From a virus, in the IMG/VR virus record IMGVR_UViG_3300037010_000365, positions 17,962 to 81,961 of that record: DNA of 64,000 nt; one strand, given 5' to 3'. The notes beneath the pieces were generated by a model. That model ran no database searches, was not told the DNA's origin, and was given only the letters and a program-made list of their open reading frames with translations. Both the position numbers and the translations under genes were made by a program. Each line of letters opens with the position of its first letter. The stretch's first letter is position 1. This document shows positions 463-57,454 of the stretch, piece after piece.

Positions 463-1125
463 ATGTCAAAGCTTTTTGCTCCTAGAAATAGATATATTGA
501 CCAAATTGGTACCAGTGATGAACAAGATTTATACTTAAGTTTATCAGGTGAGATCATATCTACCTTTGGGTTTGATATGGTTTACTTCCCTAGAGACGTA
601 TTTCATACCGATGATTTACTAGGTAGAACTGATGCTCAGTTTGGTAGAAACGCTACTTTGGTAATGTTGATTGAAGATCCTGGTAATGATGCTGATATAT
701 CAGGTCAAGCGGAAATGTATAATAAGTTTGGTGTAAAGTACGAATACGATATTTCAGTGTCTGTAACTCAACAAGCGCTTTGGGAATGTTTTGGTGATGG
801 ATATACACCGACGAAGGGTGATGTGTTTCTAGTTAAGAATCCAGATGACGTAAACAAAAACCTTAATATTCCGTTCACAGTAATGGATGTCGATTATATA
901 AACTTAGAACAGTTCGGCGGTGTAAACGGTGTCTTTAAACTCTCAGCAAAACCTTATGAATCAACTAATGAAGAGTTTGTGACCAATGATCCTCAATTAC
1001 AAGAGCTGAAGAATTCATTCGATGCACAAGGCACATCAAGCTATAACGAATCTGATATTATTTCTGATTTAATGAAAGATATTAAGACGTTCAATCCAGA
1101 TAATCCGTTTGCAAAAAGTTTTTAA
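463..1125 (+). CDS. 14: Neck protein gp14
   Basis: 220 residues (T4 gp14 is 256). In T4, gp14 joins gp13 to form the neck that closes the filled head and receives the tail. The N-terminal part (ISTFGFDMVYFPRDVF, about residues 31-46) matches the gp14 pattern in which a tyrosine/phenylalanine-PR motif follows a short helix. The C-terminal tail ends NPFAKSF, similar to the family's terminal SPFDNDF-type ending. It is followed after 11 nt by gp15, the T4 order. Identification rests on motif, size and synteny. Confidence 0.8.
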   Translation: MSKLFAPRNRYIDQIGTSDEQDLYLSLSGEIISTFGFDMVYFPRDVFHTDDLLGRTDAQFGRNATLVMLIEDPGNDADISGQAEMYNKFGVKYEYDISVSVTQQALWECFGDGYTPTKGDVFLVKNPDDVNKNLNIPFTVMDVDYINLEQFGGVNGVFKLSAKPYESTNEEFVTNDPQLQELKNSFDAQGTSSYNESDIISDLMKDIKTFNPDNPFAKSF

Positions 1126-1136
1126 GGTAATAAATT

Positions 1137-1838
1137 ATGTTAGGTTTTGATTACTTCTATAATGAATCAATTAAGAATATGATTGTTACATTTGGATCGT
1201 TGTTTAATGAAGTATATATTTCAAGAGCAAGAAAAGATACTAATTCAGTGTTGATTAAAGTTCCGTTGCACTACGGTGATCAATCTAAAGTATATATGTA
1301 TAGTAAATCTGGTAACAACCCATTTAATTCAATTTGGCCTAGAATGGCGTTTGATTATGGTATCGGTGCAGTTGATGATCAACGTAAAACTAGCAGAACG
1401 ATTATACATAACTTTGGCAAATCGGTTAATAACACTGGTGAATGGTCGTCACGAAACTTCATTCCGTATGATTTTACATTCAATTTGTATATTGGTGCAA
1501 GTGATATCCAGGACGGATTGCAAATTGTTGAGCAAGTACTACCATTCTTTCAACCAGAATTAACTGTTAAGATCAGACCACTAAAAGATTTTCCAGATTT
1601 TATCGCAGATGTTCCTATTGAATTGCTAAGCGTTACTACTGATTATGAAGCTGACGGTGAAATTGAAGCCAGGGAATATTATAACTGGACTCTTAGTTTT
1701 AATCTAAAGGGGTTCCTATTTAGTCCAGTCATTAAGGATGCTTATAAAGTAATTGATGCTTATGACATTAACCTTAAAGACTTCAACTTACTACAACAGG
1801 ATGCTAAGGATATGGTTGCTAAGAGTGGTATAATTTAA
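1137..1838 (+). CDS. 15: Tail sheath stabilizer / tail completion protein gp15
   Basis: 233 residues (T4 gp15 is 272). The protein caps the tail tube and sheath and forms the interface with the head neck. The N terminus (GFDYFYNESIKNMIVTFGSLFNEVYISR) resembles the gp15 start, in which an FYN motif and a short helix precede a strand carrying basic residues, and PLHYGDQSKVY matches the next conserved strand. The stop codon overlaps the next start (TAATG). The genes on either side (gp14 before, terminase after) support the call. Confidence 0.88.
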   Translation: MLGFDYFYNESIKNMIVTFGSLFNEVYISRARKDTNSVLIKVPLHYGDQSKVYMYSKSGNNPFNSIWPRMAFDYGIGAVDDQRKTSRTIIHNFGKSVNNTGEWSSRNFIPYDFTFNLYIGASDIQDGLQIVEQVLPFFQPELTVKIRPLKDFPDFIADVPIELLSVTTDYEADGEIEAREYYNWTLSFNLKGFLFSPVIKDAYKVIDAYDINLKDFNLLQQDAKDMVAKSGII

Positions 1839-2221
1839 TGAATTTATTAATGTTTAGAATTCCGTTATGGATTGTTGGAGTTGTCTTTATAGCAATGTCG
1901 ACACAGATAGTATCTCTTACATACGATCTAAACAGAGCAGCAGATAAATTAGATAAAGTCAATGAGATGTACACAACAGCTAAGAATAATAATGAGGTGT
2001 TAGTTGCTTCAATATCTGATCAAAATACTGCTATTGATAAGCTTAAGCAGTTGAGTGCGCTGCAACAAAAAGAATTAGATGCGAGAGTGCTAGAAGCTAA
2101 TAGATTAATGGATCTTAATAACAAGGCCGTTAACACAATTAATAATGTCAAGGTCGATACGACAGGTGAAGGGAGTATTAAATGGCTATCAGAACAGTCG
2201 CGTTCATTATCTCAATGGTAA
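1838..2221 (+). CDS. Inner-membrane spanin (Rz-like)
   Basis: 127 residues with one N-terminal membrane segment (IPLWIVGVVFIAMSTQIVSL, about 8-27) and then a long charged helix with heptad character, the architecture of i-spanins such as Rz. The last 40 nt overlap the start of a lipoprotein gene in another frame, the classic overlapped Rz/Rz1 arrangement. Spanins fuse inner and outer membranes in the last step of lysis. In T4 the spanins lie next to pnk, not among the head/tail genes, so the location is unusual. No sequence identity to a named spanin is claimed. Confidence 0.75.
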   Translation: MNLLMFRIPLWIVGVVFIAMSTQIVSLTYDLNRAADKLDKVNEMYTTAKNNNEVLVASISDQNTAIDKLKQLSALQQKELDARVLEANRLMDLNNKAVNTINNVKVDTTGEGSIKWLSEQSRSLSQW

Positions 2222-2469
2222 TAGCATTGCTGCTTTTGTCTGGATGCACCACTCAGCGTGAACCAGTGATTCGGGGTGTTAGAGTTGATGTACCTATCGC
2301 TGTTGAATCTCCGAGTGTCCCTGACAGACCTCTACCAACATTGCCAATAAGTGATATAACAGATGGCTCACCGAATGATGTTGTTGTTAAAAAGTATGCA
2401 ACTAGCATTGTTATCTTAAAGAATGAGATAAATTGGTATAGGTCTGTGATCTACAAGGATAAGCATTAA
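2182..2469 (+). CDS. Outer-membrane spanin lipoprotein (Rz1-like)
   Basis: 95 residues. The N terminus is a lipoprotein signal: a hydrophobic stretch (VAFIISMVIALLLL) followed by lipobox LLSGC, so Cys22 would be lipidated after cleavage. The mature part is proline-rich at first (SPSVPDRPLPTLP), as in many Rz1 proteins, and ends in a helix that could pair with the i-spanin. The start lies inside the i-spanin gene, a 40-nt overlap. The gene ends on TAATG, overlapping the small terminase start. Confidence 0.8.
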   Translation: MAIRTVAFIISMVIALLLLSGCTTQREPVIRGVRVDVPIAVESPSVPDRPLPTLPISDITDGSPNDVVVKKYATSIVILKNEINWYRSVIYKDKH

Positions 2470-2843
2470 TGTTTGGATCCTTACAACAACGGTTTAACGC
2501 AGAACCTATGGAATACACAATATTACCAAGCAAAACTAGCAATAAAGTTGCAGTATCAACTGAAGTAGTTGATACTTATATTGAAGATGAGCTTAAAGAT
2601 ACAGTAACACAGATTAATGATGCAGCGGATAAAATACTAAACTTGGCAAAGACAAGTGAGCAACCTAAAGCCTATGAGGTTTATGGTACGCTACTAAAGA
2701 CTAAAATTGACGCGTTAAAAGAACTAAATAATATCAGAAAAGGTACTGAAAAGCAGGTTGCTGGCGTTATTAATAATACGCAGATAAATGCGTCAGGTAC
2801 CAATATCAACGAAATATTAAAGGCGATGCGAACACAACAATGA
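2469..2843 (+). CDS. 16: Small terminase subunit gp16
   Basis: 124 residues (T4 gp16 is 164). The small subunit recognises viral DNA and stimulates the large terminase ATPase. Central helices (NDAADKILNLAKTSEQPKAY and VYGTLLKTKIDALKELNNIRK) match the gp16 core pattern of an AAK helix, a SPR/QPK-type turn and a second helix ending in LNNIRK/LHKDMK. It starts on the TAATG of the spanin gene and overlaps gp17 by ATGA, implying translational coupling. Confidence 0.85.
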   Translation: MFGSLQQRFNAEPMEYTILPSKTSNKVAVSTEVVDTYIEDELKDTVTQINDAADKILNLAKTSEQPKAYEVYGTLLKTKIDALKELNNIRKGTEKQVAGVINNTQINASGTNINEILKAMRTQQ

Positions 2844-3331
2844 GTAAAAAAGACATACCCTGGGGTAAATTTGATTTAGCATCAAAGCCAGATGATTCTG
2901 TGCTGAACATAGAACCTGATCAAGAAGGGTATTACCATGACGCTGCAGGTGAACGGTTTTCATTCAATGGAAATAGAACGCTTAGACCTGCTCATGTTAG
3001 AATGCACTTAAATGAATATCATATACAGGAAATCGCTAAGTGCGCAGAAGATATGAGATATTTCATTTTTAATTATTGTAAAGTACTAACAAGTCGCGGA
3101 TGGCGTACACCAGATCTCAGAGATTATCAAGAAACATACCTAAAAACAGCGCTAACAGATAATAGAATTGTGCTACTCCAAGGCCGGCAATCAGGTAAAT
3201 GCCAAAATTATAACACGATTATAAATATTCGTAATAAACACACCGGAGAAGTTGAAGCACTCTCTGTTGGTGAATTTCATGAACGAATAAGGAACAAAAA
3301 TAGTGATCAAACTAAAGAAGTCGATTGTTAA
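2840..3331 (+). CDS. 17: Large terminase gp17, N-terminal fragment ending in an intein N-part
   Basis: 163 residues. The first 120 residues are the terminase N-terminal region, ending exactly in the Walker A motif (LLQGRQSGK). T4 gp17 has SRQLGKT at this place. At residue 121 the sequence switches to an intein start: Cys1, then NTIINIRNKHTGEVEALSVGEF, the usual block A followed by the IRN-KTGE-type strand. The frame stops 43 residues into the intein. The rest of gp17 is in another frame from 3453. Without splicing in trans, or a frame repair, no complete P-loop can form, so this break matters for an essential packaging motor. Confidence 0.88.
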   Translation: MSKKDIPWGKFDLASKPDDSVLNIEPDQEGYYHDAAGERFSFNGNRTLRPAHVRMHLNEYHIQEIAKCAEDMRYFIFNYCKVLTSRGWRTPDLRDYQETYLKTALTDNRIVLLQGRQSGKCQNYNTIINIRNKHTGEVEALSVGEFHERIRNKNSDQTKEVDC

Positions 3332-3812
3332 AACATTTAAAATAATATCAGCACCGATTAAACCGTATGATATTATTCCACAAGAAGTTGATTATATATC
3401 GCTATGGGTTTAATACTACAGATTGCGTTTGACATTAGTTCGAGTATAGTAAATGAATTTATCTGATAACACTTACCGTAAATTCACTGAAGTATATGAT
3501 GTTAGTGATTATGAAGTCCTATCTCATAACGGTTGGGTAGATATAACACAATCAAATCAGACTGTAGAGTATGAGGTGTACTTATTAGAATTAGAAAATG
3601 GTTTATCTCTAGAATGTGCTGATACCCATATTTTGATGACTAATGATCTAACCGAAGTATATGCAAAAGACAGTTTGGGTTCGTTGATATACACTAAATC
3701 AGGTCCGTCTAAGGTAATATCGGTTAGCAACCTAGGCTACTCTGAGCGTATGTATGACCTATCTGTAGGTGGTGATCATACGTATTTCACAAATGATATA
3801 TTGTCACATAAT
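3200..3812 (+). other. Intein 1 in terminase Walker A, split into two reading frames
   Basis: The intein begins at Cys (3200-3202), directly after the P-loop lysine, and ends at the Asn codon 3810-3812 in the motif DILSHN. The next extein residue is Thr, which completes GKT. The C part has the penetrated block B-like strand (GLSLECADTHILM) and block F/G (MYDLSVGGDHTYFTNDILSHN). Bases 3329-3452 do not continue either frame: frame 2 stops at 3329 and frame 3 has stops at 3411, 3447 and 3450 before ATG 3453. The two pieces give 43 + 120 residues, about a mini-intein's worth. This is either a split intein or an intein broken by mutation or indels. Confidence 0.8.
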
Positions 3813-5561
3813 ACAGTTGCGACTGCTCTTTATTTTGTTTGGGCTGCTACATTTCACAACGACGTTAAAATTGGTATCAGCTCAAACGTAGAGAAAGGTG
3901 CTATTGAAGTACTTGATAAAGTTAAAAAGATCTACGGATCTTTACCTATTTGGTTGCAACAAGGCGTTGAAAAGTGGAACGTAAAGACCGTCATTTTAGA
4001 AAATAAATCCAGTATTATCACATCAGCTACTAACGGAGATGCGTTTCGTGGATTCTCGTTTGTAGGCGGTGAAGGATATTCTACATTATATGTAGATGAG
4101 TGTGTTGAATATAATACTAAGATTAAAATTCTATCAAGTACTACAAAAATATTCGAAGAAGTAAGTATCGGTGATTTATACCGAAGATTTAACACTGACA
4201 GTGTTGTGTATGTTTCTGATCTATCCGTGATGACGCAGACCGGCATGAGATCTTTTGATGGGATTAAGCGAACTGTTAGATCTGACGGGATTAAGATTAA
4301 AACAGCTTCAGGTGAGTTGATCTGTACACCAGAACATTTACTGAAAATCGAGAATGGCTTCATTGAAGCTAAAGATTCATTCAATAAATTCATTGATAGC
4401 AGTTCGGGCCTTGAATTGGTGACTAGCATAGAGCCGTATAACGTTGAATCTGAATACTTCGACCTTATTAATGTTAAAGGCGGTCATACATACTTAACAA
4501 ATAATATTGTTTCACACAACTGTGCATTTGTTCATGACTGGCAAGCATTTTCAGACTCGGTATTACCTACCGTATCATCTGACCCTAATGCAAATATTAT
4601 TTTGACATCCACAGCAAATGGTATGAATCATTTTTATGAAATGGTTAAACTAGCAAGAGCTAAAATATCTGAATACACACTAATAGAAACGCCATGGAAT
4701 TGTCTACCAGAGAGAAACGAAGAATGGAAGCAGAAGATAATTGCAACTAACGGCATTCAATACTTTAATCAGAACTATGGTAATCAGTTTTTGGGTTCAT
4801 CATATACGCTTATTAACAGCGAAGGTCTTGAAAAACTTATTTCACGCACGCCAATCCAATCAAATGATAATCTTACAATTTATCAAAAACCAATAAAAGG
4901 TGCTAAGTATATCATATTAGGTGATCTTGCGTCTGGAGCTGGTGAAGATTTTTCAGTTTTACAAGTGATTAAACTGAGTAAGCGTAAATTTGAACAAGTT
5001 GCGATTTTTAGATCTAAAGATACTCCAGTTCTTAGTATGCCTTTGGTTATTCAAGAAATTGGTAAAAAATATAATGATGCGTTTGTGTTTATGGAAATCA
5101 ACTTCGGTGAAGAAGCTGCTAGCAGACTATATCACGACTTAGAGTATGAAAATCTTTTAACAATTGCGGTTCATAATGGAAAACAAAAGCTACAAGGCTT
5201 CCGCGGTAAGATGCAAACAGGTCTTCGGGTTGATGTTAAAATTAAGCAGACACAACTTAGCTCATTAAAAACGTTAATTGAATCAAATAAGCTTGTAATT
5301 AATGACAATACTACTATCTCTGAATTTTATTCATTCGTTCAGCATGGCATTTCATTCGCTGCAGAAGCAAATAAGCATGATGATTGTGTTATGGCGTTGG
5401 CACTATTAGGATGGCTAGTAACTCAGCCTGTATTTTCTGAAATTATTGATTATGATTACATTGCTGACTATGAGAGTGAAAAATCTGAAGAATTATCAGA
5501 TTTAATACCTGCCGCGTTTTTTGGGTATAACGACCCAGATGAATGGGAAGTTTTTGAATAG
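3453..5561 (+). CDS. 17: Large terminase gp17, C-terminal fragment with intein C-part, ATPase remainder, second intein and nuclease
   Basis: 702 residues. Residues 1-120 are the end of intein 1. The extein resumes with TVATALYFVWAATF, the strand after Walker A. Walker B is LYVDE, interrupted by a second intein (residues 217-356), after which CAFVHDW continues as in T4 DECAF. The nuclease domain follows: GDLASGAGEDF with the first acidic residue, EINFGEEAA, and HDDCVMALALLGW with the C-terminal acidic pair. Together with the N fragment the exteins match the usual gp17 length. The ATG at 3453 has no strong Shine-Dalgarno sequence, so it may not be a real start. Confidence 0.9.
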   Translation: MNLSDNTYRKFTEVYDVSDYEVLSHNGWVDITQSNQTVEYEVYLLELENGLSLECADTHILMTNDLTEVYAKDSLGSLIYTKSGPSKVISVSNLGYSERMYDLSVGGDHTYFTNDILSHNTVATALYFVWAATFHNDVKIGISSNVEKGAIEVLDKVKKIYGSLPIWLQQGVEKWNVKTVILENKSSIITSATNGDAFRGFSFVGGEGYSTLYVDECVEYNTKIKILSSTTKIFEEVSIGDLYRRFNTDSVVYVSDLSVMTQTGMRSFDGIKRTVRSDGIKIKTASGELICTPEHLLKIENGFIEAKDSFNKFIDSSSGLELVTSIEPYNVESEYFDLINVKGGHTYLTNNIVSHNCAFVHDWQAFSDSVLPTVSSDPNANIILTSTANGMNHFYEMVKLARAKISEYTLIETPWNCLPERNEEWKQKIIATNGIQYFNQNYGNQFLGSSYTLINSEGLEKLISRTPIQSNDNLTIYQKPIKGAKYIILGDLASGAGEDFSVLQVIKLSKRKFEQVAIFRSKDTPVLSMPLVIQEIGKKYNDAFVFMEINFGEEAASRLYHDLEYENLLTIAVHNGKQKLQGFRGKMQTGLRVDVKIKQTQLSSLKTLIESNKLVINDNTTISEFYSFVQHGISFAAEANKHDDCVMALALLGWLVTQPVFSEIIDYDYIADYESEKSEELSDLIPAAFFGYNDPDEWEVFE
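4101..4520 (+). other. Mini-intein 2 in terminase Walker B
   Basis: 140 residues in frame within gp17. It starts with Cys (4101-4103) in CVEYNTKIKI and has block B (GELICTPEHLLKI, with the conserved His). It ends with FDLINVKGGHTYLTNNIVSHN, the terminal His-Asn at 4515-4520. The +1 extein residue is Cys of the Walker B neighbourhood (VDE / CAF). There is no endonuclease domain. All residues needed for cis splicing are visible, so this one should be active. Confidence 0.92.
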
Positions 5562-53718: not shown

Positions 53719-55341
53719 ATGAAAACAATTCACGTTAGAAAACGCTCAGGTGAATTAGAGCTTCGCGACGATGATAAAATCAATAAGCTGGTACAGTTTG
53801 CTTGTGAAGGTGTAAATGATGTTTCAGCGTCAATGGTTGTTATTCAATCTAAAGTGAAGTTTTATGATGGTATTCCAACTGATGATATTCACGAAGCATT
53901 AATTAAAACCGCAGCTGATTTAATCACAGTAGCAACCCCAAACTATCAACAAGTTGCGGCTAAGCTAATTTCTTATAAATTACGAAAAATTGCATATCGT
54001 ACTTATACACCGCCTACGTTGTTAGATCATATCAATCGTGTGGTTAGTTTAGGATTCTACGATAAGGCTATTCTAGAACTATACACCGAAGACGAAATTA
54101 ATAAGCTAGATAAGGTTATTAATCACGGGAATGACGATTTGTTTACATACGCGGCTATGAAACAATTTGAAGATAAGTATCTCGTTAGAAATCGTTCAAC
54201 CGGTGAAGTACTAGAAACCCCTCAAATGGCTTACATTCTAGTAGCTATGACTCTATTTTCCATGGAAGACGCTAGTTGCAGAATGGAATTGGTTAAAGAG
54301 TATTATAAAGAAATCTCAACAGGTATCAAGTCAACAATCAGTTTACCTACGCCAATTAGCGCAGGAGTTAGAACACCTACACGCCAATTCAGTTCATGCG
54401 TAGTTTTAAAAGCAGGTGATTCAATTGACTCCTTGAATGCTACAACATCAGCTATTGTGAAGTACGTTTCTAAACGAGCTGGCATTGGCGTTGATTTTTC
54501 AGCTGTACGTCCTAGTGGATCCCCAATTCGTGGGGGTGAAGCAACACATACAGGAGCCATTCCGTTTATTAAGTATATCCAAGGTGGTGTTAAGAGCAGT
54601 TCACAAGGTGCTATTAGAGCAGGCGCTGCTACGCTTTACATACCAGTATGGCATCGTGAAATCGAAGACTTAATTGTTATTAAAAATAACAAAGGCACTG
54701 AAGATAACCGAGCTAGAGGGTTAGACTACGCTATTCAATTAAACGGACACTTCTATAAGAAAGCAATGGCTCGCGAAGAATATTGTCTATTCAATCCTAA
54801 CGAACATCACGACTTATATGAAGCATTCTTTAACGATCAAGATTTGTACAGCACCCTGTACGATAAACTATCGAAGAAGAAAGGTGTTAAGAAAGTAGAT
54901 GCATTCACATTGTTGACTAATATCATCACTGAAAGAGCAAGCACAGGTCGTATCTATATTATGAACGTTGACCATGTGAATAAACAAACTTCACATAAAT
55001 CAACAATTTATAGTTCAAATCTTTGCTTATCTGGTGAAACCATAGTTACCATTAAACAAGACGGTGTTGCTAATCAAGTATCAATGAAAGAATTGGATGA
55101 AATTTTCACAAATCATAAAAATATTATGATTAAGTCGTATGACGAAAATACGGATAGCGTAGTATGGACATTGGTAGAAGCTTCAGCAATGACATCTGTG
55201 TCAGCTAAGGTTGTGAAAGTAACTGATTCGTCAAGCGGCCAATCCATAATTTGTACGCCTGACCATGAAGTTTATACCTCAAACCGTGGATACGTTAAAG
55301 CTGGTAATTTATTAAGCGATGATAAATTAGTTTTATGCTAA
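53719..55341 (+). CDS. nrdA: Ribonucleotide reductase large subunit NrdA, N-part fused to split-intein N-half
   Basis: 540 residues. Residues 1-435 are class Ia NrdA: N-terminal ATP-cone (VRKRSGELELRDDDKI), QFSSCVVL with the redox Cys equivalent to E. coli Cys225, GIGVDFSAVRPSGSPIRG and RGLDYAIQLN. After SSNL the next residue should be the thiyl-radical Cys, but an intein N-half starts instead: CLSGETIVTIKQDG ... SIICTPDHEVYTSNRG ... DDKLVLC, 105 residues, then stop. The rest of NrdA is encoded beyond an endonuclease gene. Only protein trans-splicing can give whole NrdA. Confidence 0.93.
   Translation: MKTIHVRKRSGELELRDDDKINKLVQFACEGVNDVSASMVVIQSKVKFYDGIPTDDIHEALIKTAADLITVATPNYQQVAAKLISYKLRKIAYRTYTPPTLLDHINRVVSLGFYDKAILELYTEDEINKLDKVINHGNDDLFTYAAMKQFEDKYLVRNRSTGEVLETPQMAYILVAMTLFSMEDASCRMELVKEYYKEISTGIKSTISLPTPISAGVRTPTRQFSSCVVLKAGDSIDSLNATTSAIVKYVSKRAGIGVDFSAVRPSGSPIRGGEATHTGAIPFIKYIQGGVKSSSQGAIRAGAATLYIPVWHREIEDLIVIKNNKGTEDNRARGLDYAIQLNGHFYKKAMAREEYCLFNPNEHHDLYEAFFNDQDLYSTLYDKLSKKKGVKKVDAFTLLTNIITERASTGRIYIMNVDHVNKQTSHKSTIYSSNLCLSGETIVTIKQDGVANQVSMKELDEIFTNHKNIMIKSYDENTDSVVWTLVEASAMTSVSAKVVKVTDSSSGQSIICTPDHEVYTSNRGYVKAGNLLSDDKLVLC
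55024..55338 (+). other. Split-intein N-half in NrdA
   Basis: Codons for 105 residues from Cys1 (55024-55026) to the last Cys before TAA. Contains block A (CLSGETIV), block B with T-P-D-H and the Y-T-S-N-R-G-Y-V-K-A-G-N-L block. Length matches known natural split inteins, where the break lies between blocks B and F. Confidence 0.92.
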
Positions 55342-55347
55342 GAGATT

Positions 55348-55383
55348 ACTCCGCTCATTAAATACTATTTTAATGAGCGGAGT
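55348..55383. promoter_or_regulatory. 15-bp hairpin covering the endonuclease ribosome site
   Basis: ACTCCGCTCATTAAA ... TTTAATGAGCGGAGT, perfect 15-bp stem with a 6-nt loop. The GGAG at 55379-55382, the only Shine-Dalgarno for ATG 55393 (10 nt away), is locked in the 3' arm. Could block translation of the endonuclease from long transcripts or act as a terminator-like structure. Confidence 0.7.
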
Positions 55384-55392
55384 CCTCTATCA

Positions 55393-56352
55393 ATGAACTA
55401 TGAAAGACTGTATAATATTTTTATTGATTATTGTAGAGTCACACCGCCGACACAGCGGATTGAGCGTAGAAATAAACATGATGAGAGATTATTTCAAGAT
55501 CATTTATACCTTGAAAAGCATCATATTATACCTAGACATAACGGTGGAAGAGATACAGATGAAAACCTTGTGGTATTACTACCAGAAGAACATTATCTCG
55601 CGCATTTGATAAGGTTTAAAGCTTACAACGATAGAAATGATTTTTTAGCAATTAGATTCATGGTTAATGGATATAACAATAGCGAAAGAAAGTTGCTAAT
55701 ACCTAAAAAGGTAACATCAAAAATTATAGGTAGATTTAAACAAAAGATTTATTATTTTAGGAAGAAAAACACATGGCATACTGATGATGGTATACAACGT
55801 ATATCTAGAGCTAGGACTGGAAAGGTATCAGTAGTTGATTCAATAACAAAAGAAGTAATTGGTTCAATAGATAGAAATCATCCTAATATCATTTCTGGAA
55901 AATGGGTACACCATACTAAAGGTATGCTTAGTGCAATTTCGATAGAAACAGGTAAAACTGTTAGACTCACGACATCAGAGTACAGAAATAATAAAGAGTT
56001 GTATAAACCATTGCTGGATACTAGCGGCGAAGCCAATCAGAATTTTTCTGGGTTTAGCGATGATGATCTTATTAATTTATATTATGAATTTTGTGGTAAA
56101 CTAATTTCGCTAGGGTCATCAATTATTCCATCGTACTCAACGTCAATACGCTATCATAGATCAATTGGGGTTTATGTGCCTATTACTTATACTAAATTTA
56201 GGTTTAACGGTAATTATGACCAATGCGTTCGTGATATGCATGACGAAATGTCTAAAAAATATAAGCTTCCACTTATGAAAATTAGGAGTAATAAAGACAT
56301 AAAATATATAAATGATTTAATCAGGAGATTAAAATTAAATGATAACAATTGA
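55393..56352 (+). CDS. HNH homing endonuclease inside the nrdA break
   Basis: 319 residues. HNH domain at about 41-75: LEKHHIIPRHNGGRDTDENL and LLPEEHYLAHLIRF, giving the H-H, N and H of the beta-beta-alpha-metal site. The C-terminal half has repeated DNA-recognition-like segments (GKVSVVDSITKEVIGSIDRN, then GKTVRLTTSEYRNNKELY, as in NUMOD-type modules). AT-rich compared with nrdA. The gene overlaps the start of the NrdA C-part by 14 nt. It probably cuts unfractured nrdA of related phages at the insertion site. Confidence 0.88.
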   Translation: MNYERLYNIFIDYCRVTPPTQRIERRNKHDERLFQDHLYLEKHHIIPRHNGGRDTDENLVVLLPEEHYLAHLIRFKAYNDRNDFLAIRFMVNGYNNSERKLLIPKKVTSKIIGRFKQKIYYFRKKNTWHTDDGIQRISRARTGKVSVVDSITKEVIGSIDRNHPNIISGKWVHHTKGMLSAISIETGKTVRLTTSEYRNNKELYKPLLDTSGEANQNFSGFSDDDLINLYYEFCGKLISLGSSIIPSYSTSIRYHRSIGVYVPITYTKFRFNGNYDQCVRDMHDEMSKKYKLPLMKIRSNKDIKYINDLIRRLKLNDNN

Positions 56353-57454
56353 ATATTTAGATTATGAGATACCAGTATATGATATTACTGTAGCAGATAC
56401 TCATAATTTTTTCGCTAATGGTATTTTAGTGCATAACTGCCTAGAAATTGCCGCTCCTACAGCTGACCTAACTGAGTTTAGTAATTTACGTACTGAAGTT
56501 GCAAAAGATACCGGTTTATATTCAGATGACATGCCAATGGAACAGTTTAGAACTCGTTTTGGCGAGATTAATCTTTGTACGTTATCTGCTATTAATTGGG
56601 GTAATATTAAGAAGCCAGGGGACTTTGAACGAGTTTGTCATCTAGCACTCAGAGCGTTGGATAACTTAATTACATACCAAGATTATCCGATGATTGCAGC
56701 CCACGTACCTGCCATTAATCGACGTAACCTTGGTGTGGGTATTATCAACTTAGCGCACTTCTTAGCAACTCATAACGTTAAGTACGGTGAAGAAAAGGCA
56801 TTAGAGTTGGTTGATACATACGCTGAAGCAATGTATTACTATCTGATGAAAGCCAACGTACAATTAGCTAAAGAACGGGGACCTTGCGGCTGGTATAAAG
56901 ACACTCATTACTCAGACGGTGTGTTTATACATGAATTACGAAATGCTAATGTTGACTCTCTAATTCCACATAATCCAAAAATGGATTGGGAATCTCTTAG
57001 AGCTGATATGATTAAATATGGTGTACGTAATTCACAAGTAGTAGCATTGATGCCTTCAGAGACATCAGCAGTTATTTCAAACGCTACTAATGGCATTGAA
57101 CCTCCACGGAAAATCATTACAGTAAAAACGTCAAAAGACTCTGTAATGAAACAATTGGTACCTAAACCTAAACTAAAATATGACTTATTATGGGATCAAC
57201 CAACCCCAGCAGGTTATATTAAAACGGTTGCTGTGTTACAAAAATACAATGATCAATCAATCTCGGCAAATACGTCTTATAACCCTGATAATTTCAACGG
57301 TCCTATTCCAATGACTCAACTTCTTCAGGATATTTTGATGTGTTATAAGTTTGGGGTAAAAACAGCTTACTATCATAATACAATGGTAGAAATGACTGAT
57401 GATATTACAGAAACAAAATCTGAAGAATCAGATTGTGAATCTTGCAAAATTTAA
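56339..57454 (+). CDS. nrdA: NrdA C-part fused to split-intein C-half
   Basis: 371 residues, ATG 56339 with CAGGAG upstream. Residues 1-33 are the intein C-half: MITIEYLDYEIPVYDITVADTHNFFANGILVHN in one-letter form across blocks F and G, ending His-Asn. Residue 34 is the +1 Cys, which is also the catalytic thiyl-radical Cys of NrdA (C-L-E-I, E. coli Cys439). INLCTLSAINWG carries the second redox Cys (Cys462), and LMPSETSAVISNATNGIEPP the active-site loop. C-terminal CESCKI is the redox tail. Confidence 0.94.
   Translation: MITIEYLDYEIPVYDITVADTHNFFANGILVHNCLEIAAPTADLTEFSNLRTEVAKDTGLYSDDMPMEQFRTRFGEINLCTLSAINWGNIKKPGDFERVCHLALRALDNLITYQDYPMIAAHVPAINRRNLGVGIINLAHFLATHNVKYGEEKALELVDTYAEAMYYYLMKANVQLAKERGPCGWYKDTHYSDGVFIHELRNANVDSLIPHNPKMDWESLRADMIKYGVRNSQVVALMPSETSAVISNATNGIEPPRKIITVKTSKDSVMKQLVPKPKLKYDLLWDQPTPAGYIKTVAVLQKYNDQSISANTSYNPDNFNGPIPMTQLLQDILMCYKFGVKTAYYHNTMVEMTDDITETKSEESDCESCKI

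What the first reader, a model, noticed from the sequence alone, without database searches (positions are those of the whole stretch)
2840..5561. Terminase motor interrupted in both Walker A and Walker B by two inteins, the first one broken
Intein 1 sits between Lys and Thr of the P-loop (GRQSGK / T). Intein 2 sits inside Walker B (VDE / CAF). Intein 2 is an intact 140-residue mini-intein. Intein 1 is divided into two frames by 3331-3452. That gap has no endonuclease and only scraps of open frame (for example KSIVKTFKIISAPIKPYDI in frame 3). If real, gp17 would need one trans-splice and one cis-splice to make an ATPase. The break after 43 residues is not at the usual split-intein position, so it may be a new type of split or a recently shattered intein.
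Basis: partly seen in the sequence, partly recalled or inferred. Interest (0 to 1): 0.86.

Follow-up and report, generated by a model that had tools for sequence, protein, structure and literature searches.

The report
Split intein in phage packaging motor
The phage's DNA-packaging motor gene really is cut into two genes inside a self-splicing insert, but the cut sits where a known class of naturally split inteins is cut, so the protein is most likely stitched together from two pieces; it is a good new member of that class, not a broken gene or a new kind of split.

Summary
Intein 1 (3200-3812, Cys1...His-Asn, Thr+1) sits between Lys and Thr of the gp17 P-loop. It is encoded as a 43-aa N half (ORF 2840-3331) and a 120-aa C half (ORF 3453-5561) in different frames, with a 121-nt spacer. 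Intein 2 (4101-4520, 140 aa) is an intact cis mini-intein in Walker B. 'Broken' and 'new type of split' do not hold. At least 4 base edits would be needed to join the frames. The C half starts within about 3 residues of the N-terminus of CatC, the C fragment of the atypically split Cat-TerL intein. In an AlphaFold model of an unsplit relative the break falls in the only disordered loop. Of 62 distinct sequences with both halves visible, 57 are split at this place: 36 with a long spacer, mostly holding an endonuclease-sized ORF, and 21 (this one included) with a short one. A cultured phage, VmeM-32, carries the two gp17 halves about 77 kb apart. A ~91% identical contig has an empty site 1 and keeps intein 2. 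Best reading: a functional, endonuclease-free, naturally split intein; gp17 needs one trans-splice and one cis-splice. Splicing itself was not shown.

The parts
2840..3199 (+). gp17 (TerL) N-extein, 120 aa, ending in GRQSGK of the P-loop
   Evidence: (PHROG terminase large subunit 1.1e-21)
3200..3331 (+). N half of intein 1 (43 aa, Cys1) and its stop codon TAA 3329-3331
3332..3452 (+). 121-nt spacer between the halves, stops in all frames, no endonuclease or RNA family
3303..3413 (+). 36-aa GTG ORF overlapping the end of the N half, where relatives start their endonuclease ORF; identity unproven
3453..3812 (+). C half of intein 1 (120 aa), own ATG, block B His, block F Asp, terminal Ser-His-Asn
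3813..4100 (+). gp17 middle extein, Thr+1 to Walker B VDE (96 aa)
4101..4520 (+). Intein 2, intact 140-aa cis mini-intein in Walker B (VDE/CAF)
4521..5561 (+). gp17 C-extein with the RNase H-like nuclease domain, and stop

Best explanation
The phage makes gp17 from two genes. The first encodes the N-extein up to the P-loop Lys plus a 43-aa intein-N fragment. The second encodes a 120-aa intein-C fragment, the rest of the ATPase with a cis mini-intein in Walker B, and the nuclease. The two intein fragments associate into one Hint fold and splice in trans (Cys1, Thr+1, His-Asn), giving GRQSGK-T; intein 2 splices itself out in cis. The intein belongs to a large family of P-loop inteins split at this loop, most members of which carry a separate endonuclease-sized ORF in the gap; this copy lacks it. 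Shown here: the anatomy, the homology, the split position, the shared arrangement, the empty site. Inferred: fragment association, splicing in infected cells, and loss of an endonuclease in this lineage.
For: Catalytic positions are intact and invariant across relatives. At least 4 edits are needed to join the frames. L019, about 91% identical, has GRQSGK/TVTT uninterrupted and keeps intein 2. Cultured phage VmeM-32 has the N half at 79947-80624 (-) and the C half at 1102-3216 (+), with both inteins at the same sites. Split in 57 of 62 distinct sequences with both halves visible, 21 with spacers under 500 nt. The C-half profile aligns with CatC, profile position 15 at CatC residue 12, E 9e-10. 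AF2 of cis relative L086: pLDDT 90, only residues ~35-56 disordered, which is the split point; best PDB match is VidaL, which I recall as another atypically split intein. L039 and L040: same N half at protein level (dN 0, dS 0.47), one with a ~500-aa spacer ORF, one with overlapping ORFs. Only one TerL in the 82-kb record. NrdA in the same window is also split by an intein.
Against: No splicing was measured. The window's C half has a weak Shine-Dalgarno site (about the weakest fifth of ORFs over 150 aa). There is no close relative that has intein 1, so selection on this copy could not be tested directly. The record is incomplete, so a second TerL cannot be fully excluded. In VmeM-32 the separation rests on one assembly.
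Confidence: 0.88

Rival explanations
1. Assembly or sequencing error: the real phage has one cis intein and the two frames are joined.
For: Metagenomic assembly, reads not checked here; cis versions exist at this site.
Against: At least 4 edits needed; the same break, at the same place, in 56 other distinct sequences and a cultured phage.
Confidence: 0.04
2. A dead, decaying intein in a non-viable phage or a defective copy.
For: No endonuclease; frame interrupted; weak ribosome site.
Against: Splicing residues intact, both ORFs open to their ends, comparison with L019 shows purifying selection on exteins and intein 2; only TerL copy found.
Confidence: 0.06
3. The spacer is removed at RNA level or skipped by the ribosome (intron or bypassing), so a single polypeptide with a cis intein is made.
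For: Introns in phage terL are known, e.g. ICP1 (PMC10448857).
Against: No Rfam match in 2800-4700; 121 nt is very short for a group I or II intron (own knowledge); the C half has its own ATG; VmeM-32 halves are on separate loci.
Confidence: 0.02

Closest known systems
AceL-TerL and GOS-TerL atypically split inteins (25/104 and 37/115 aa; table in PMC11766414) and the consensus Cat-TerL (6dsl)
   Same: Terminase large subunit, short N fragment and long C fragment, break at the same point of the Hint fold, Cys1 as in AceL
   Different: +1 residue is Thr here, Cys there (PMC11766414), so a different insertion site; this one is at the P-loop Lys/Thr. N fragment 43 aa. C halves are only distantly alike.
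Fractured genes with split inteins and free-standing homing endonucleases (Dassa et al. 2009, cited in PMC10448857 and PMC7090010; paper itself not held)
   Same: Split intein in a phage gene; relatives L013, L014, L041, L048, L070, L080, L107 have DUF559/REase-like or T5orf172 ORFs between the halves
   Different: No endonuclease in the window's spacer
TerL1-a (P-loop Lys/Thr) and TerL1-e (Walker B) inteins of mycobacteriophages (PMC5050341)
   Same: Same two motifs of the terminase ATPase
   Different: Described there without mention of splitting, and in another terminase family
TerL split intein of Vibrio phage vB_VmeM-32 (KU160494; unremarked in PMC6483233)
   Same: Both inteins at the same two sites; intein 1 split at the same place
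   Different: Halves lie at separate genome loci rather than 121 nt apart
VidaL intein (6vgv/6vgw)
   Same: Best fold match of the cis relative L086, TMt 0.84; C-half profile E 1.1e-8. I recall it as atypically split with a very short N fragment (not checked in a paper).
   Different: Only 17% identity to L086

Membership tests
Class 1 intein | Cys1/Ser1, block B His, block F Asp, terminal His-Asn, nucleophilic +1 residue | tested here: met
   Cys1, His59 of the C half, Asp102, Ser-His-Asn, Thr+1
Naturally split intein | Halves encoded by separate ORFs that cannot be read through | tested here: met
   at least 4 edits; same halves on separate loci in VmeM-32
Naturally split intein | Trans-splicing activity | not testable with these tools
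   Needs protein expression
Atypically split (AceL/GOS/Cat-TerL position) | Break after the first strands and helix, short N and long C fragment | tested here: met
   alignment to CatC 6dsl_B; one search disordered loop 35-56; 43/120 aa
AceL/GOS-TerL | Same insertion site with Cys+1 | tested here: not met
   +1 is Thr at the P-loop; AceL and GOS have Cys+1 (PMC11766414)
Fractured gene sensu Dassa 2009 | Free-standing endonuclease ORF between the halves | tested here: not met
   no endonuclease or detectable remnant in 3332-3452
Terminase large subunit (T4 gp17) | Walker A/B ATPase plus RNase H-like nuclease domain | tested here: met
   Terminase_6C and PHROG terminase large subunit matches

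The most novel reading that the evidence does not exclude
There is a large, little-described family of P-loop-targeting inteins, in terminases and also in DnaB-like helicases, ClpB-type ATPases and clamp loaders, for which being split at this N-proximal loop is the normal state, with the homing endonuclease gained and lost repeatedly. In this phage lineage the packaging ATPase is assembled only after splicing at both Walker A and Walker B.
Probability: 0.6. Interest if true: 0.55.

Novelty: new member of a known kind. Interest (0 to 1): 0.42.

Why it matters
An essential ATPase whose catalytic P-loop does not exist until two separate proteins splice together is a clean natural case of post-translational gene assembly. 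Its relatives span unsplit, split with endonuclease, split without endonuclease and halves at distant loci, which makes the evolution of split inteins traceable step by step. The 43/120 pair with a Lys/Thr junction is also a candidate tool for protein labelling.

Tried and rejected
Joining the frames by one or two edits: needs at least four. RNA intron: no Rfam match. Endonuclease remnant in the spacer: the 36-aa ORF has no Pfam match and only chance PHROG matches; blastp to all relatives' spacers best E 0.14; Smith-Waterman with shuffles not significant against 44 spacer ORFs, nor at DNA level against the sister clade L029/L030. Second terL copy: none in the record. N half against PDB: only chance matches. 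The tree of C halves is poorly resolved (121 columns, 35 of 64 branches open), so it shows intermixing of spacer types but cannot tell gain from loss. Dassa 2009 and Stevens 2018 are not in the paper library. Searches failed on coordinates.

Full report
What is there. The T4-like gp17 gene is in two ORFs: 2840-3331 (163 aa) and 3453-5561 (702 aa). The first ends its terminase part at the P-loop GRQSGK and continues with 43 intein residues beginning with Cys. The second starts with 120 intein residues ending Ser-His-Asn, then Thr+1 and the rest of the terminase, which carries a second, intact 140-aa intein at VDE/CAF (4101-4520). The first intein spans 3200-3812, 613 nt.

The empty site. Contig L019, about 91% identical in DNA across the region, has the uninterrupted P-loop GRQSGK/TVTT and keeps intein 2. 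This fixes the borders of intein 1 and shows that it is a presence/absence element among close relatives. Between window and L019, both exteins compared and intein 2 are under purifying selection (dN/dS about 0.04 to 0.14).

The split is shared. Cultured Vibrio phage vB_VmeM-32 has both inteins at the same sites. Its gp17 C part (1102-3216, +) starts at the same point of intein 1, and its N part (79947-80624, -) ends 34 residues after the P-loop Lys; they are at separate loci about 77 kb apart on the record. Its genome was assembled from PacBio data as one contig, and a search of the paper's text finds no mention of an intein (PMC6483233). A profile search of viral contigs found more than 500 relatives, of which the best 80 were kept. 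Among distinct sequences with both halves visible, the window included, 57 are split and 5 contiguous; 21 of the split ones, the window included, have spacers under 500 nt, and 36 have longer ones, all but two with an open frame of 300 residues or more. Of 12 spacer ORFs scanned, seven match DUF559/REase-like or T5orf172 families above the curated cut-off; the rest match weakly or not at all. L018 keeps only a piece that resembles the end of such an enzyme by eye. L039 and L040 are the same intein with and without the long ORF. Some relatives sit in other P-loop ATPases: DnaB-like, ClpB-like, clamp loader. These counts describe the best-matching 80, not the whole family.

Which split. The usual natural split is about 100/35-40 residues (PMC10189870); known atypical ones in terminase are AceL-TerL 25/104 and GOS-TerL 37/115 (PMC11766414). 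The C-half profile matches CatC, the C fragment of the consensus Cat-TerL, with profile position 15 at CatC residue 12, so the breaks coincide within a few residues. In the AlphaFold model of the contiguous relative L086 (pLDDT 90) only the loop ~35-56 is disordered, and that is where the window is split. Its best fold match is the VidaL intein. The insertion site differs from AceL/GOS (Thr+1 here, Cys+1 there); Lys/Thr P-loop and Walker B intein sites are both known in mycobacteriophage terminases (PMC5050341).

How it works. Most likely the two proteins associate through their intein fragments and splice in trans, restoring Walker A, while intein 2 splices in cis, restoring Walker B. Only then is there an ATPase. 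The order of the two reactions is unknown. That an endonuclease was lost in this lineage is an inference: its nearest tree neighbours L029 and L030 have long spacers (97% SH-aLRT), but no remnant is detectable in the window's spacer and the tree cannot give direction. The same window holds a second split gene, NrdA, with an HNH endonuclease ORF between its halves, so trans-splicing would not be a one-off for this phage.

Verdict. 'Broken' and 'new type of split' are not. It is a new member of a known kind, of more interest for its family than for itself.

Noticed in passing
53719-57454: The ribonucleotide reductase large-subunit gene (NrdA) is also in two pieces with a split intein (ORF 53719-55341 and ORF 56339-57454) and an HNH homing-endonuclease ORF (55393-56352) between them: the classical fractured-gene layout.
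   Followed up: partly
L013 3980-5848 and L015 3428-5602: A further intein-like start (CVVGDTKI / CVTADTVVT) in terL runs in frame into a GIY-YIG-like sequence and the ORF ends without the rest of the terminase; possibly another split intein with its endonuclease fused to the N half.
   Followed up: no
L056, L065, L068, L077, L081, L082, L093, L097, L098: Relatives of this intein in other P-loop ATPases (DnaB-like, ClpB-like and clamp loader by Pfam for those scanned; others untyped), mostly split at the same place.
   Followed up: partly
3303-3413: 36-aa GTG ORF with a better Shine-Dalgarno site than the C-half gene, overlapping the end of the N half; could be a leader for translational coupling or a leftover; no match found.
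   Followed up: partly
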